This document shows, in pieces, positions 8,981-15,392 of a stretch of 64,000 nucleotides of DNA (its first letter is position 1; every line of letters begins with the position of its first letter). Made by a program: the position numbers and the translations under genes. The notes under the pieces were generated by a model, which had not been told where the DNA came from, searched no databases, and saw only the letters and a list, made by a program, of their open reading frames with translations. This stretch comes from Ureibacillus massiliensis 4400831 = CIP 108448 = CCUG 49529 (lineage in GTDB: Bacteria > Bacillota > Bacilli > Bacillales_A > Planococcaceae), in NCBI RefSeq assembly GCF_000772965.1, contig NZ_JPVQ01000004.1, positions 62,001 to 126,000 on the forward strand, written 5' to 3'.

Positions 8981-9403
8981 TTAATTTTTCTGAGTGAAAA
9001 TAACAATGGCATCTCGTAAAAATTCAGTTCCGCCTTTAGTTGCCTTATCGTAATATGCTTTAAATCGTTCATCAGAGACATACATTTCTGCCAGTCCAAC
9101 GTGAGCTTCTTCCGAATAAGAAGGCCAAGTATATATTAGCCATTGTTTATGTTTAGCAGCTAACGCTTGAGCTATTGGAGAAGCTGGATCACCGGTTTCA
9201 AAAGCAGTTGGAAGTAATTCGAGAATTTCTTCACCGAGCTTCGTAAATGCTTCGTAATCCTCTTTTGACATATTTTTAAATTTGTTATTGGATTTTTCTA
9301 CAGCTTCCTCTCCATATTTCTGGCGAATCTCCTCCCCATATTGTTTTTCATTGTCTTCTATTAATTTATCTTTAAATGCCTCAAATTTTTCATTATTTGA
9401 CAT
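8981..9403 (-). CDS. Possible internal translation product: free TipAS domain
   Basis: Inside the MerR gene an in-frame ATG (residue 114) is preceded by AAAAGGAG at 8-base spacing, as good as the site of the full gene. Translation from here would yield about 140 residues, exactly the TipAS drug-binding domain without the DNA-binding half. Streptomyces tipA is known to make such a short form (TipAS) from an internal start. That it happens here is inference from the site. Confidence 0.45.
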   Translation of the reverse strand: MSNNEKFEAFKDKLIEDNEKQYGEEIRQKYGEEAVEKSNNKFKNMSKEDYEAFTKLGEEILELLPTAFETGDPASPIAQALAAKHKQWLIYTWPSYSEEAHVGLAEMYVSDERFKAYYDKATKGGTEFLRDAIVIFTQKN

Positions 9404-9742
9404 GACTAACTCTCCTTTTTCATGAGCGATTGTTTTTTCAACCACCCCAATAAGTTTATCCAGTCGAGATCTTTTTTGAATGAGCTCACGGAGATGTGAT
9501 TGTAATGCTTTAGATTTATCAAAATTAGGATCATTCATTATAGAAGTAATCGTTTCTAAATCAACATCTAATTCTCTAAAAAACAGTATTTGTTGTAATC
9601 GATCTACTTCCTGCTGACCATAAATTCTATATCCAGCACTACTAATTCTTGTCGGTTTAAGTAAATTAATTTCATCATAATAGCGTAATGTTCGTGCACT
9701 AACATTCGCTAGTTTTGCTAATTTACTAATTGTGTACTCCAT
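8981..9742 (-). CDS. MerR family regulator with TipAS drug-binding domain (TipA/Mta type)
   Basis: 253 residues. An N-terminal winged MerR helix-turn-helix (Y-T-I-S-K-L-A-K-L-A-N-V-S, then R-T-L-R-Y-Y-D) is followed by a coiled-coil dimer helix (about 75-110) and a C-terminal TipAS fold (about 125-245). Family members bind drugs or peptides and activate efflux genes as well as their own promoter. ATG 9742 has AGGAGG 8 bases upstream; the longer frame to 9769 runs through that site. A second well-placed start occurs at 9403 (see separate entry). No efflux gene is adjacent, so the target is unknown. Confidence 0.85.
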   Translation of the reverse strand: MEYTISKLAKLANVSARTLRYYDEINLLKPTRISSAGYRIYGQQEVDRLQQILFFRELDVDLETITSIMNDPNFDKSKALQSHLRELIQKRSRLDKLIGVVEKTIAHEKGELVMSNNEKFEAFKDKLIEDNEKQYGEEIRQKYGEEAVEKSNNKFKNMSKEDYEAFTKLGEEILELLPTAFETGDPASPIAQALAAKHKQWLIYTWPSYSEEAHVGLAEMYVSDERFKAYYDKATKGGTEFLRDAIVIFTQKN

Positions 9743-9764
9743 AAAAAATCCCTCCTGTGATTTC

Positions 9765-9795
9765 ATCATAAAGGTTTACGTAACGAGAAGGTCAA
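9765..9795 (-). promoter_or_regulatory. MerR-type promoter with 19-bp spacer
   Basis: On the minus strand TTGACC (9795-9790), a 19-base spacer and TATGAT (9770-9765) precede the MerR gene. The overlong 19-bp spacer is the hallmark of promoters that MerR proteins activate by DNA distortion. The spacer contains the palindrome TTACGTAA near its centre. This suggests autoregulation. Confidence 0.6.
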
Positions 9796-10223
9796 TATAT
9801 AAATTGGATTTTTTTATTTGTTTCATTTGTAGAATGGATAGATCGGCGAATTTTTTCTATAGAAAAAAGAGTTGTATGAGTAGACCATATCATGCTGTAA
9901 CTAAACATAAAAATTGCGAGTGGACAAAACTGTTAGTGAATGGACTAAAAACATGAGTGGGTGGACAAAATGTGGCGTTGACTGGACAAAATGCTTACGT
10001 GAACGGACAAAACCTTTCCATAATGGACAAAACTCGCTTGCAACTGGACAAAACGTACTCCTAACTGGACAAAACCAATGCGTTACTAACAAAAGAACTA
10101 ATAACTCAAAAATTAAATACAAATGAAGCTTAAAATATGATAGAATCTTTACTTTAACTGGATTAATATTAGAACATAATAAAATGAATAACAAACGATA
10201 TTTAAAATATAAGAGGGTATAAA
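9770..10223. other. Divergent intergenic region holding a periodic repeat array
   Basis: 454 bases between the divergent MerR and GntR genes. It contains the MerR promoter, the repeat array listed separately, and about 130 AT-rich bases upstream of the GntR gene. Open frames over the array on both strands only translate the repeats (for example Trp-Thr-Lys every seven residues) and change register when the period slips from 21 to 20, so I do not accept them as genes. Confidence 0.6.
9921..10094 (+). repeat. Array of 20-21 bp spaced TGGACAAAA motifs
   Basis: The 9-mer TGGACAAAA or a one-base variant starts at 9921, 9941, 9962, 9983, 10004, 10024, 10045 and 10066. A decayed ninth copy (CTAACAAAA) starts near 10086. 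The period is 20-21 bases, two helical turns. The 11-12 bases between motifs differ in every unit. It is not a CRISPR: both repeat and spacer are too short and no cas genes are near. The function is unknown; a protein-binding array or a dispersed intergenic repeat are both possible. Confidence 0.85.
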
Positions 10224-10856
10224 ATGGATAACAGAAGGCTACAAGTAAAACAACCAAAGTACATGAAGATTGCTGCTGATATTGCGTCAAAAATTGTTGA
10301 TAAAAAGTATGTAATTGGCGAAAAAATTTATGCAAGATCATCCCTTGCAAGTCAATATGGTGTGTCTTCTGAAACGGCAAGAAGAGCTATTGCAGTGCTG
10401 CAGGATTTAGAAATTGTAGAGGCGACAAAGGGTAGCGGCGTCATGATAAAATCTTCGGAAAAGGCTGCTCAATTTGTCCATCAATTTTTGGATGTACAAT
10501 CGATACAACAAATTCAGATGGAAATGTTAGAAAGTATAAAGAGACAGCGAGATGAGTTAGCTTACTTACAGGAAACAACGGAGCAATTAGTGAGTAGGAC
10601 AGAGAGATTCCGATCAGTGAATCCATTTGTACCGTTTCAGATTGAAATTTTAGAAAGTTCTCCATATATTTCCCAAACAATTGGAAGCATCAATTTTTGG
10701 CAAAATACAATGGCGACAATTGTTGGGATAAGAAGAGAAAGTGAGCTTATTTTATCACCAGGTCCATATGCAACAATTGAAAAAAATGACATTATCTACT
10801 TTATTGGAAACGATGAAAGTATAGACAGAGTAGAGAAATTTTTATACCCAATTTAA
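10224..10856 (+). CDS. GntR-type regulator with RCK_C domain (BusR-like, candidate c-di-AMP sensor)
   Basis: 210 residues. Residues about 10-75 form a GntR winged helix (I-A-x-x-I-A-S-K-I, then S-S-x-x-A-R-R-A-I-A-V-L), followed by a coiled-coil stretch (about 90-120). The C-terminal RCK_C/TrkA-C domain spans about 130-210 and contains the G-x-R-R-E and E-K-N-D-I-I-Y-F-I-G segments. This order is that of BusR of Streptococcus and Lactococcus, a repressor that binds c-di-AMP and controls a betaine transporter. Here the next operon is a glycine betaine ABC transporter, which supports the same role. RBS AGAGGGT. It has its own terminator. Confidence 0.8.
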   Translation: MDNRRLQVKQPKYMKIAADIASKIVDKKYVIGEKIYARSSLASQYGVSSETARRAIAVLQDLEIVEATKGSGVMIKSSEKAAQFVHQFLDVQSIQQIQMEMLESIKRQRDELAYLQETTEQLVSRTERFRSVNPFVPFQIEILESSPYISQTIGSINFWQNTMATIVGIRRESELILSPGPYATIEKNDIIYFIGNDESIDRVEKFLYPI

Positions 10857-10902
10857 AAGGTCTACAGATACTAAAGCACCAGTATCTGTAGACCTTTTTT
10901 AT
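10855..10902 (+). terminator. Intrinsic terminator of the GntR-RCK_C gene
   Basis: AAAAGGTCTACAGATACT pairs perfectly with AGTATCTGTAGACCTTTT, an 18-bp stem with an 8-base loop and a T run. Confidence 0.9.
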
Positions 10903-10947
10903 TTATGAATCTTTAATGCTATTTAGATGGATTCATAAATTGGAAAT

Positions 10948-10994
10948 TTGACACAAGTAACAACTCTTTGTTACGATTAGGTTGTCACTTTGTT
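10948..10994 (+). promoter_or_regulatory. opuA promoter with operator palindrome
   Basis: TTGACA (10948-10953), an 18-base spacer and TACGAT (10972-10977) form a promoter. A perfect inverted repeat GTAACAA-CTCT-TTGTTAC (10957-10974) fills the spacer. The 7-mer CTTTGTT occurs at 10966 and again at 10988, 22 bases apart. A related arm pair GTAACAAC/GTTGTCAC spans 10957-10988. The layout fits repression by the adjacent BusR-like protein. Confidence 0.6.
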
Positions 10995-11040
10995 GTAATC
11001 TAAATGAAATATTTATAGAAATATAGGAAAGGAGAATGGT

Positions 11041-12249
11041 ATGGAGAAAATAAAAGTCGAAAATGTAACAAAAGTTTTCGGGAAACATATCAATAGTGCG
11101 TTAAAGCTCGTACAACAAAACAAGAGTAAGACAGAAATTTTAAAGCAAACCGGCGCAACAATAGGTGTGTATAATGCGAATTTCACCGTCAACGAAGGGG
11201 AAATATTCGTTATTATGGGACTTTCAGGAAGTGGTAAGTCAACGTTAGTTCGTCTCCTTAATCGCCTCATTGAACCAACAAGTGGAAACATCTACATAGA
11301 TGGTGAAAACATCTCCAAAATGAATAAACAGCAGCTTATAAAAGTTCGACGCGAAAAAATGAGTATGGTGTTTCAAAACTTTGGTTTATTCCCACAAAGA
11401 ACAGTACTTGCCAACACAGAGTTCGGATTAGAAGTGCGCGGTATTACTAAAGAAGAACGTAGATTGAAAGCAGAAAAGGCTTTAGACAACGCAGGGCTAT
11501 TAGAATACAAAGATCAATATCCTAAACAATTATCAGGTGGGATGCAACAACGTGTTGGTCTTGCAAGGGCATTAGCGAACGACCCTGACATTTTACTAAT
11601 GGATGAAGCTTTTTCTGCGCTCGATCCACTAATTCGAAAAGACATGCAAGATGAATTACTAGATTTACAACAAAAGATGAAAAAGACAATCATATTTATC
11701 ACCCATGATTTAAATGAAGCATTGCGAATTGGTGATCGCATTGCGTTAATGAAGGACGGAGAAATTATTCAAATTGGTACAGGAGAAGATATATTAACAA
11801 ACCCTGCCAATGATTATGTAAAAACATTCTTAGAGGATGTAGACCGTTCAAAAGTGTTAACAGTTGAAAATGCGATGATTCGTCCAATTTCTGTAAACAT
11901 TGAAATCGATGGTCCGAAAGTGGCATTACAAAGAATGAGAGAAGAAGAAGTCAGTGTATTGTTGGCTGTTAATAAAAAACGTGAATTCCAGGGTTATATT
12001 ACTGCTGACGATGCATTAGAAGCATCTAAACAAGGGGAAAAAGGTGTTGTCAACTTCTTAAGAAAGGACATGCCGGTTGTTCCACCAGATATGCTTATTC
12101 AGGATGTACTAGGAATCATCTCGGATTCTCCAACACCTCTTGCGGTTGTGCAAGACGAAAAGTTAGTTGGAGTGTTAATAAGAGGCGTTGTCATCGAGAC
12201 CCTCGCGGCAAGTCACGAGGAGGTGACAGAGAATGAATCAGTTTCTTGA
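11041..12249 (+). CDS. opuAA: Glycine betaine/proline betaine ABC transporter ATPase (OpuAA/ProV)
   Basis: 402 residues. Walker [10 protein letters not shown] near residue 62, signature [10 protein letters not shown], Walker B I-L-L-M-D-E-A. Two C-terminal CBS motifs (about 280-390) are usual for osmoregulated OpuA/ProV subunits. It energises uptake of compatible solutes under osmotic stress. It starts the three-gene opuA operon with a GGAGA site and overlaps the permease gene by 17 bases. Confidence 0.92.
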
Positions 12250-13084
12250 TAACATTCCGACACTGCCAGTATCAGATGCAGTGGAATATGTAATGGAAAT
12301 ACTAACAGATTCATTAGCATCGTTATTTGACTTTGTTCAAAAATGGGGTCAAAATTCGATGGATTCGATAACGGATATGCTTTTAGCTATCCCGGCAATT
12401 ATCTTTATCTTAATTGTAGCGATTATTGCTTTCTTTGCTAGTAAGAAAAAATTTGGGCTAGCAATATTCTCAATCGTTGGATTGTATTTTATATACAATC
12501 AGGGATTATGGGATGAACTGATGAATACCATCACGTTAGTACTTTTTGCTAGTGTTATTGCGATCATTATTGGTATTCCATTAGGTATTTTAATGTCTAA
12601 AAGCTCAATTGCTGAAGCAATCCTTAAACCGGTATTGGACTTTATGCAAACAATGCCTGGGTTTGTGTATTTAATCCCAGCGGTTGCTTTCTTTGGAATC
12701 GGTGTCGTACCAGGGGTATTTGCATCAGTAATCTTTGCATTACCACCAACCGTTCGATTTACCAACCTAGGTATAAAACAAGTACCAAGAGAATTGGTTG
12801 AAGCAGCAGACTCGTACGGAAGTACTGGTAGACAAAAACTATTTAAAGTTGAATTGCCTTTGGCTAAATCAACAATTATGGCAGGGGTTAACCAAACGGT
12901 ACTTCTTTCATTATCAATGGTTGTTATTGCATCCATGATTGGTGCGCCAGGTTTAGGTAGAGAGGTTTTATCTGCTTTGCAACGAGCTCAAGTAGGTAAT
13001 GGCTTTGTAGCAGGATTAAGCTTAGTTATATTAGCCATTATAATTGACCGTTTAACGCAAAGCTTTAATAAAAAACAAGGTTAG
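12233..13084 (+). CDS. opuAB: Glycine betaine ABC transporter permease (OpuAB/ProW)
   Basis: 283 residues with about seven membrane segments. The permease coupling motif ([20 protein letters not shown]) lies near residues 183-202. It forms the membrane pore of the OpuA importer. GGAGGTGA lies just before the ATG, within the end of opuAA, so the two are translationally linked. Confidence 0.92.
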
Positions 13085-13097
13085 AAAGGGAGATTGG

Positions 13098-14003
13098 ATG
13101 AATTTTAAAAAATTTAAAATGTTAGGTTTAACATTAGGTTTAGGGGCAATGCTTGCAGCTTGTGGTTCTGAAAGCGCAACTCCAGCTAATGAAGGAGAAA
13201 CAAATAACAACACGGAAACAACAACAGAATCTAAAGAAATTAACTTAGCTTATGTAGAATGGGATACAGAAATTGCTTCTACACATGTTGTAGCAGAGGT
13301 GTTAGAAGGTATCGGTTATGATGTAACAGTAACACCACTAGATAATGCGATTATGTGGGAAGCGGTAGCATCTGGTGAAGCAGATGCAATGGTAGCTGGT
13401 TGGTTACCAGGTACACATGCTGCCCAATATGAACAATATAAAGATAGTTTAGTAGAATTAGGCGTAAATCTTGAGGGTGCAAAAATTGGTTTAGTAGTTC
13501 CGACTTATATGGAAGCAAACTCAATTGAAGATTTAACAGATGAAGCGAATATGACAATTACAGGTATTGAAGCAGGTGCAGGTGTAATGTCTGCAACGGA
13601 AAATGCAATTGCCGAATATGAAAACCTAGCGGATTGGGAACTGCTGCCATCTTCTTCAGGTGCAATGACAGTTGCATTAGATCAAGCGATTAAAAATGAA
13701 GAAGAAGTTATTGTAACAGGCTGGTCTCCACACTGGAAATTTGCTTCTTATGACTTAAAGTATTTAGAAGATCCAAAAGGTGTATTTGGTGGGGCAGAAA
13801 CGATTAATACATTTGCTCGTCAAGGGTTAGAAGAAGACATGCCTGAAGCATTTAAAGTATTAGATGCATTCCAATGGACAAGTGCTGATATTGAAGAAGT
13901 AATGCTAGAAATTCATGATGGCGCAGATCCAGAAGAAGCTGCAGCGAAATGGGTTGAAGAAAACCCAGATAAAGTTGCTGAATGGACAAAAGATGTAGAA
14001 TAA
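13098..14003 (+). CDS. opuAC: Glycine betaine-binding lipoprotein (OpuAC/ProX)
   Basis: 301 residues. A signal peptide with lipobox L-A-A-C (Cys22) and an acidic Thr/Glu linker precede an OpuAC-fold binding domain. Tryptophans in Y-V-E-W-D, A-I-M-W-E, V-A-G-W-L-P and V-T-G-W-S-P-H-W are in positions typical of the aromatic cage that holds the betaine trimethylammonium group. It delivers substrate to OpuAB at the outer membrane face. Third gene of the operon, 13 bases after opuAB. Confidence 0.92.
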   Translation: MNFKKFKMLGLTLGLGAMLAACGSESATPANEGETNNNTETTTESKEINLAYVEWDTEIASTHVVAEVLEGIGYDVTVTPLDNAIMWEAVASGEADAMVAGWLPGTHAAQYEQYKDSLVELGVNLEGAKIGLVVPTYMEANSIEDLTDEANMTITGIEAGAGVMSATENAIAEYENLADWELLPSSSGAMTVALDQAIKNEEEVIVTGWSPHWKFASYDLKYLEDPKGVFGGAETINTFARQGLEEDMPEAFKVLDAFQWTSADIEEVMLEIHDGADPEEAAAKWVEENPDKVAEWTKDVE

Positions 14004-14762: not shown

Positions 14763-15392
14763 TTGATAGTCTGGATACTTTTATTAATACTCATAGTTGG
14801 AATTTTTATAGCCTATTCCATATATAAATTTGAAGATAGTCAATTTAGTAATATGACAGGGTACTCTTTTTTGGATATATGGAAAGATAAAACGGTTAGA
14901 CATACATATAAAGTTGTAAGCACGTTAAGGAAGGCGTCAGGAGATTTTAAGATTTTAACAAATCTACATATTCCAGTTAGCACGAATAAGGAGAAGATAA
15001 TTGATATTGTTTTTTTACATGAATCAGGCATATATTTAATAAATATTTCAAAAGAAGATGGATGGGTGTATGGAAGAGAGACTGATAATGAGTGGACGAT
15101 CGCTACTTATGGTGATAAAAAGGAAGCAGTGAAGAATCCTTTAACTGACCATCAAAATATCATTGCAGTTTTTTCTAAGATCTTTCCACAGATTCAAGAA
15201 GAATCGATATATTCCTTAGCTGTTTTTTCAGAGAATAGCTCTTTTAAAATGATTGAATTATATTCTAAAAATGTAGATGTTTTAAAACTAAGTGAACTCA
15301 AAAATTACTGGGACCATAAAGATAGTACAATCACTAAAACTGAGATTGAAACAATTGCTCAAAGCCTTAGTAAGTTAATTAAACAAATATAA
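14763..15392 (+). CDS. Membrane-anchored NERD-like protein with altered active site
   Basis: 209 residues from a TTG start preceded by AGGGGGG at 6-base spacing. Residues 2-20 form a membrane anchor. The region about 60-140 follows the NERD (nuclease-related) pattern: a hydrophobic strand with Asp (I-I-D-I-V-F-L), G-I-Y-L-I-N-I-S, G-W-V-Y-G, and K-N-P-L-x-x-H-Q-N. In nuclease-like members the second strand ends E-x-K; here it is N-I-S, so catalysis is doubtful. It stands alone before a hairpin terminator. Function unknown. Confidence 0.6.
   Translation: MIVWILLLILIVGIFIAYSIYKFEDSQFSNMTGYSFLDIWKDKTVRHTYKVVSTLRKASGDFKILTNLHIPVSTNKEKIIDIVFLHESGIYLINISKEDGWVYGRETDNEWTIATYGDKKEAVKNPLTDHQNIIAVFSKIFPQIQEESIYSLAVFSENSSFKMIELYSKNVDVLKLSELKNYWDHKDSTITKTEIETIAQSLSKLIKQI

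What the first reader, a model, noticed from the sequence alone, without database searches (positions are those of the whole stretch)
10224..14003. BusR-like c-di-AMP sensor candidate beside an OpuA betaine operon
The regulator has the GntR helix, coiled coil and RCK_C order of BusR, which binds c-di-AMP and represses a betaine transporter in Streptococcus and Lactococcus. The next operon here is OpuA. Its promoter carries a perfect palindrome (10957-10974) between -35 and -10, and the 7-mer CTTTGTT repeats 22 bp apart, which suits a bipartite binder. A BusR-type circuit in a Bacillales species would differ from B. subtilis, where I know of no such control of opuA.
Basis: partly seen in the sequence, partly recalled or inferred. 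Interest (0 to 1): 0.7.

Follow-up and report, generated by a model that had tools for sequence, protein, structure and literature searches.

The report
BusR repressor controlling betaine uptake
This Bacillus relative appears to carry the same salt-stress switch known from streptococci and lactococci, a repressor thought to read the signal c-di-AMP and to sit on the promoter of a betaine importer, and relatives show that the switch also occurs outside the lactic acid bacteria, with a changed DNA address.

Summary
The regulator at 10224-10856 is a full-length BusR ortholog, aligned to S. agalactiae BusR over 200 residues without a gap, so the coiled-coil 'ruler' keeps its length. Nine of 11 c-di-AMP pocket residues are kept (V158F, H160Q differ). 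The operon 11041-14003 is OpuA. That is 10957-10988, GTAAC-N22-GTCAC (arms AAGTAACAAC / GTTGTCACTT), over the promoter, with the 22-bp spacing published for BusR. Of the 80 best named BusR loci, 51 have opuA and 21 an OpuC-like importer next; all 72 have the site within 2 mismatches of 14, against 0 of 20 opuA promoters without BusR. The genome has one exact copy and a c-di-AMP synthase gene. Planococcaceae and Clostridia form sister BusR clades with half-site GTAACAAC and residues Y36/R54; lactic-type BusR has GTGACC/T with H or K36 and K54. A new member of a known kind; DNA binding, repression and c-di-AMP sensing are inferred, not shown.

The parts
10224..10856 (+). busR ortholog: GntR winged helix, coiled coil, RCK_C; 210 aa
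10855..10898 (+). terminator-like hairpin after busR, suggesting that opuA is a separate transcription unit
   Evidence: 18 pairs; consensus match; 4 such sites found in the region, 2.4 expected
10948..10953 (+). -35-like hexamer TTGACA of the opuA promoter
   Evidence: TTGAC stands just before the left arm in 16 of 18 rows of a hand-picked alignment, not in L208 and the S. agalactiae row
10957..10988 (.). proposed BusR operator GTAAC-N22-GTCAC (extended arms 10955-10964 and 10981-10990)
10972..10977 (+). -10-like hexamer TACGAT inside the operator
   Evidence: similar A+T-rich stretch at this place, by eye
11041..12249 (+). opuAA, ATP-binding subunit with CBS domain
   Evidence: TIGR01186 over cut-off
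12233..13084 (+). opuAB, permease
13098..14003 (+). opuAC, glycine-betaine substrate-binding protein
   Evidence: PF04069

Best explanation
The gene at 10224 encodes BusR. As a tetramer held by a coiled coil of fixed length it binds two inverted half-sites 22 bp apart (GTAAC and GTCAC, 10957-10988) that lie across the promoter of opuA, and blocks RNA polymerase. Binding is favoured when c-di-AMP fills the RCK_C dimer pocket, which signals enough potassium and osmolyte; when c-di-AMP falls under salt stress, repression is relieved and the OpuA betaine importer is made. Shown here: homology, pocket conservation, operator conservation and its co-occurrence with busR across genomes, and presence of a diadenylate cyclase gene. 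Inferred: DNA binding, repression and c-di-AMP as co-repressor.
For: phmmer to 7b5t/7b5y (S. agalactiae BusR) E=1e-40 over residues 6-205 without a gap, and to 7wjg (named S. mutans BusR) E=1.7e-45. AF2 model (mean pLDDT 84) has BusR chains as its first 16 PDB matches; RCK_C against c-di-AMP-bound 7b5u: TMt 0.88-0.90, rmsd 0.9-1.0. Pocket residues listed in PMC8517857 (section read): 9 of 11 identical. Operator within 2 of 14 mismatches in 51 of 51 named busR-opuA loci (43 exact), 0.0005 per shuffled locus. Not within 2 mismatches in any of 20 opuA promoters without BusR: 19 taken from the 40 family genomes that have an opuAA hit but no busR, plus the own genome's second opuA. S. agalactiae busAA promoter (genome G621, BusR 100% to 7b5t) has AAAGTGAC-N22-GTCACTTT. 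busR directly upstream of opuAA on the same strand in 58 of 58 family loci fetched, paralogs L062-L064 apart. The 63 of 151 family genomes with busR are the same 63 whose best opuAA is at least 68% identical; the other 40 with an opuAA hit at E<=1e-130 have at most 63% (set equality checked). One DAC-domain gene.
Against: His160, which contacts the phosphate in S. agalactiae, is Gln here and in 47 of 53 Planococcaceae rows; position 158 is Phe in all 53, so affinity could be altered. The left half-site reads GTAAC, not the published GAC triplet. The published S. agalactiae promoter has two BusR sites with 22-bp spacing; my strict GAC-N22-GTC scan found one, and found none in the one other streptococcal promoter it could judge (L130); for L131 and L132 it looked at the wrong end of the locus and says nothing. 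The 14-position pattern was taken from some of the loci it was then counted in, and family loci are related by descent. Full-length Foldseek TM-scores are only 0.36-0.54 because domain orientations differ; the model is a monomer with pTM 0.43. No binding or expression data.
Confidence: 0.88

Rival explanations
1. It is a BusR-fold repressor of opuA that no longer senses c-di-AMP and instead responds to ionic strength or another ligand.
For: V158F and H160Q in the pocket; PMC10243994 (passages) reports that L. lactis BusR-DNA binding also responds to ionic strength.
Against: The other nine listed pocket positions are kept; Gln160 is also the residue in 6 of 7 opuA-linked lactic-type loci, and His160 in 27 of 28 clostridial rows that share Phe158; the genome has a diadenylate cyclase gene.
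Confidence: 0.09
2. The operator is the reader's 10957-10974 palindrome or the CTTTGTT direct repeat, perhaps bound by a different regulator.
For: The 7-bp arms GTAACAA/TTGTTAC are real in the window, and the inner pair at 8-bp spacing is present within 2 mismatches in 46 of 51 family opuA loci.
Against: The inner pair is exact in 0 of 51 and within 2 mismatches in only 2 of 21 clostridial loci, whereas the 22-bp pair is within 2 mismatches in 51 of 51 and 21 of 21. The inner arm overlaps the -10, which could explain its partial conservation. The CTTTGTT repeat was not tested for conservation on its own.
Confidence: 0.04
3. OpuA is controlled mainly by a GbsR-type repressor (as OpuAR in Bacillus infantis) and the GntR gene is incidental.
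For: OpuAR next to opuA is shown for B. infantis (PMC6207618, passages).
Against: The neighbours tested with Pfam are MerR/TipAS, NERD and two without a hit, none MarR/GbsR-like; the rest of the genome was not searched for GbsR. busR-opuA adjacency in 58 of 58 family loci and the co-occurring operator.
Confidence: 0.03

Closest known systems
BusR of Streptococcus agalactiae (7B5T, 7B5Y) controlling busAB
   Same: Domain order, gap-free length including the coiled coil, 9 of 11 pocket residues, 22-bp bipartite site AAGTRAC/GTYACTT in the promoter, OpuA-type target
   Different: V158F, H160Q, K36Y, K54R; one half-site GTAAC instead of GTGAC; busR sits directly upstream of opuA here, while in genome G621 the two genes are about 600 kb apart on one contig
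   Same: busR-opuA adjacency; strict GTNAC-N22-GTNAC in 5 of 7, a close variant in L102 and L103; site just after TTGACA or TTGACT
   Different: Half-site GTGACCA, GTGACTA or CTGACCA, with H36/K54 in 7 of 7
BusR of Clostridia (28 of L181-L213)
   Same: Sister clade to the window's; half-site GTAACAAC, 22-bp spacing, Y36/R54
   Different: In 21 of 28 the target is an OpuC/OpuB-like importer, ATPase plus fused permease-binding protein, 35-40% to OpuAA; the other 7 have no such importer following in the same direction
OpuAR (GbsR family) of Bacillus infantis
   Same: A repressor gene next to opuA in a Bacillales species
   Different: Another protein family, relieved by compatible solutes

Membership tests
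BusR | GntR winged helix, long coiled-coil helix, C-terminal RCK_C | tested here: met
   PF00392 13-75 and PF02080 139-207 over cut-off; helix 78-132; gap-free alignment to 7b5t
BusR | c-di-AMP pocket residues of RCK_C (list from PMC8517857, section read) | tested here: met
   9 of 11 listed positions identical; V158F and H160Q differ
BusR | Two inverted half-sites 22 bp apart in the target promoter | tested here: met
   10957-10988; 51 of 51 and 21 of 21 relatives within 2 mismatches
BusR | GAC triplet in both half-sites (as in the four published sites) | tested here: inconclusive
   Right half has it (GTCAC), left half reads GTAAC. In relatives both halves are mostly GTAAC: 36 of 48 opuA and 14 of 20 opuC-like sites within 1 mismatch. 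A property of the published lactic sites rather than of the protein.
BusR | Target is an OpuA/BusA glycine-betaine ABC importer | tested here: met
   regulation itself not tested
BusR | Host makes c-di-AMP | tested here: met
   one DAC gene over cut-off, G000:C98; gene presence only
BusR | Tetramer by antiparallel coiled coil | not testable with these tools
   only a monomer model was made
BusR | c-di-AMP binding strengthens operator binding and represses the target | not testable with these tools
   needs gel shift, ITC and reporter
OpuAR / GbsR family | GbsR/MarR-type winged-helix regulator | tested here: not met
   Pfam hits over cut-off are GntR and TrkA_C only

The most novel reading that the evidence does not exclude
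Within BusR proper, residues 36 and 54 set the half-site read through one fixed 22-bp ruler: Y36/R54 goes with GTAACAAC (Planococcaceae, Clostridia), H or K36 with K54 goes with GTGACC/T (lactic type), and the one H36/R54 lineage with a site (L104) has the mixed half-site CTGACAAC. With the code held constant the circuit has swapped transporters, OpuA in Planococcaceae and an OpuC-like importer in Clostridia, so c-di-AMP represses osmolyte uptake at transcription well beyond lactic acid bacteria. Against it: in a second GntR-RCK_C subfamily S36/K54 proteins (L108, L110, L111, L112, L115) go with CAAC-type sites, so residue 54 cannot be the whole rule there.
Probability: 0.4. Interest if true: 0.5.

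Novelty: new member of a known kind. Interest (0 to 1): 0.42.

Why it matters
c-di-AMP control of opuA transcription is worked out in streptococci and lactococci. This extends it, with a specific operator, to the Lysinibacillus/Ureibacillus group and, with another transporter, to Clostridia, and offers a testable link between two recognition residues and the half-site. In the open-access library no paper holds both BusR and Lysinibacillus. Six hold BusR and Clostridium; of these I saw passages of three, one of which says that homologs occur in Clostridium (PMC6108528), one names BusR only as an RCK_C receptor (PMC11302148) and one mentions Clostridium for another gene (PMC12542702); the other three I saw as listings. 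Subscription papers and supplements were not searched.

Tried and rejected
A wider BusR regulon in the same genome: no second exact or 1-mismatch site; 2-mismatch sites equal the reversed-pattern control, 22 and 22. Autoregulation by the same operator: no core within 1 mismatch in 9770-10223; one 1-mismatch core lies inside opuAA at 12196 and is probably chance. A sequence-agnostic tally of inverted-repeat spacing showed an excess over a broad range of even spacings, because terminator hairpins and overlapping registers blur it, so I rely. There, at 2 mismatches, other spacings also appear in the 51 opuA loci (8-mer gap 2 in 46, gap 25 in 21, fewer elsewhere) but only one exact match at any other spacing. 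Six loci that missed the strict core pattern and five have 1-2 mismatches of 14. Of 80 named loci (the best 80 of 158 confirmed), 8 were left out of the operator count because no opu ATPase follows busR in the same direction: L178 (cut by the contig end), L183, L189, L190, L197, L201, L203, L207; in the seven with sequence I saw no convincing site within 700 bp downstream. L002-L004 were weak hits to other GntR proteins and were not used as BusR. Of 20 class-level loci fetched, 7 have busR next to opuA; L105 and L107 have opuA about 3 kb away; L104, L108, L112, L114 and L115 have OpuC-like genes nearby; the rest none recognised. L165 is labelled a Pelosinus MAG but is Lysinibacillus-like and was counted with Planococcaceae. 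Literature one search matched 1,639 papers on loose terms and was uninformative; replace it.
Full report
What is there. ORF 10224-10856 encodes a 210-residue protein with GntR and TrkA_C (RCK_C) domains. It ends in a terminator-like hairpin at 10855-10898. A promoter-like TTGACA-18-TACGAT follows at 10948-10977 (a consensus match; such matches are no more frequent than in shuffles), then opuAA, opuAB and opuAC to 14003. The own genome has no other BusR ortholog: its other three hits have E of 6e-5 or weaker.

The protein is BusR. phmmer against solved chains gives 7wjg (E 1.7e-45) and 7b5t/7b5y (E 1e-40) over nearly the whole length, and the 7b5t alignment has no gap between residues 6 and 205. 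An AlphaFold2 model from 45 window and locus sequences (mean pLDDT 84, pTM 0.43) has BusR chains of S. agalactiae and S. mutans as its first 16 Foldseek matches. Full-length TM-scores are 0.36-0.54, as domain orientations differ; the RCK_C part superposes on c-di-AMP-bound 7b5u at about 1 A.

Pocket. Section 18 of PMC8517857 (read) lists Ile153, Gly154, Asn157, Val158, Trp159, His160, Ala164, Thr165, Ile166, Gly180 and Pro181. Numbering coincides here. The window keeps all but Val158 (Phe) and His160 (Gln). Position 160 is Gln in 47 and His in 6 of 53 Planococcaceae rows, His in 27 of 28 clostridial rows, and Gln in 6 of 7 opuA-linked lactic-type rows. The other listed positions are not all fixed in relatives: 154 varies in both groups and 164 is Ala in 33 of 53 Planococcaceae rows. 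The effect of Gln160 on binding is unknown.

Operator. PMC8517857 section 20 (read) states that BusR needs two half-sites (GAC) 22 bp apart and that spacing changes of +5 or -10 bp prevent recognition. The window has GTAAC at 10957-10961 and GTCAC at 10984-10988, with exactly 22 bp between them. The genome whose BusR is 100% identical to 7b5t carries AAAGTGAC-N22-GTCACTTT upstream of busAA; the window reads CAAGTAAC-N22-GTCACTTT. The paper describes two sites in that promoter; my strict scan found one, and none in one other streptococcal promoter, L130.

Conservation and controls. Of 80 named loci (the best 80 of 158), 51 have busR followed by opuA and 21 by an OpuC-like importer; 8 have no opu ATPase following in the same direction and were not counted. 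GTNACAAC-N16-GTTGTNAC is present within 2 mismatches of 14 in 51 of 51 (43 exact) and 21 of 21 (12 exact). Shuffled regions gave 0.0005 and 0.0002 per locus, and only one exact match occurred at any other spacing from 0 to 30. The pattern was derived from some of these loci, so the spacing comparison and the negative control carry most of the weight. In 20 opuA promoters without BusR (19 of the 40 family genomes with an opuAA hit but no busR, plus the own genome's second opuA) none has the site within 2 mismatches; the best has 3. In an alignment of 18 sites that I picked, TTGAC stands just before the left arm in 16, and the right arm ends past the -10, so a bound tetramer would cover the promoter.

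Distribution. busR orthologs occur in 63 of 151 family genomes (8 of 19 genera), 85 of 250 in a wider draw with the same family labels, and 33 of 398 class genomes (20 of 145 genera; E up to 1e-15, all subfamilies). Names come: Ureibacillus, Lysinibacillus, Rummeliibacillus, Kurthia, Metasolibacillus, Solibacillus, and Clostridia such as Anaerocolumna and Clostridium. The window's protein groups with Ureibacillus. In the family, the 63 genomes with busR are exactly the 63 with an opuAA at least 68% identical to the window's. busR lies directly upstream of opuAA in 58 of 58 family loci fetched.

Phylogeny and code. In a tree of 61 rows (thinned at 82% identity from 111), Planococcaceae and Clostridia join (98/93) apart from the lactic-type clade (99/92); the root is a midpoint for drawing only. 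All 81 rows of the first two have Y36 and R54; 7 of 7 lactic opuA-linked rows have H36/K54 and 7 of 7 streptococcal rows K36/K54. Mutating K36 or K54 in S. agalactiae BusR impairs DNA binding. Half-sites follow: GTAACAAC in the first group, GTGACC/T in the others. L104 (H36, R54) has CTGACAAC-N16-GTTGTCAG. Against a general rule, S36/K54 proteins of a second subfamily go with CAAC-type sites. That each position reads a given base is an inference from few lineages.

Mechanism. By analogy with the S. agalactiae structures, c-di-AMP frees the inhibited winged helices and the tetramer clamps the promoter; low c-di-AMP under salt stress lifts repression. The genome has one DAC-domain gene. Binding, repression and the signal remain to be tested.

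Novelty. BusR is known, and homologs in Clostridium were mentioned in 2018 (PMC6108528, passage). In Bacillales, opuA control by the unrelated OpuAR is published (PMC6207618, passages), and its held text mentions neither BusR nor GntR. No held paper contains both BusR and Lysinibacillus. Searches were seen as listings apart from the papers named in this report. That B. subtilis lacks BusR is recalled, not tested.

Noticed in passing
window 9922-10074: Eight copies of GGACaAAA every 20-21 bp lie between the MerR-type gene and busR. Paired TGGACAAAA copies occur across the genome (31 forward, 7 reverse matches against 0 and 0 for the reversed pattern). Function unknown.
   Followed up: partly
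L062, L063, L064, L114, L108, L112, L115: A second GntR-RCK_C subfamily has inverted sites CTnnCAAC-N17-GTTG, that is 23 rather than 22 bp between cores, just upstream of its own gene in L062-L064 and near OpuC-like genes in the other four. L104, L110, L111 and L116 have N16, in L110 and L116 more than 2 kb from the regulator; none clear in L109 and L113. Possibly a different ruler length.
   Followed up: partly
G000:C94:38805-39992 (outside the window): The same genome has a second OpuA-type ATPase gene, 54% identical, whose upstream region has no BusR site within 2 mismatches.
   Followed up: partly
L207:4815-6399: In a Clostridiales MAG, busR is followed by a weakly P-II-like ORF (below Pfam cut-off) and a sodium/hydrogen exchanger family antiporter instead of a betaine importer.
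   Followed up: partly
window 8981-9769 (-): MerR regulator with a TipAS antibiotic-recognition domain.
   Followed up: no
window 14763-15392: TTG-start ORF with a NERD (nuclease-related) domain downstream of opuA.
   Followed up: no
L165: A contig labelled as a Pelosinus MAG carries a Lysinibacillus-like busR-opuA locus, probably a binning contaminant.
   Followed up: no
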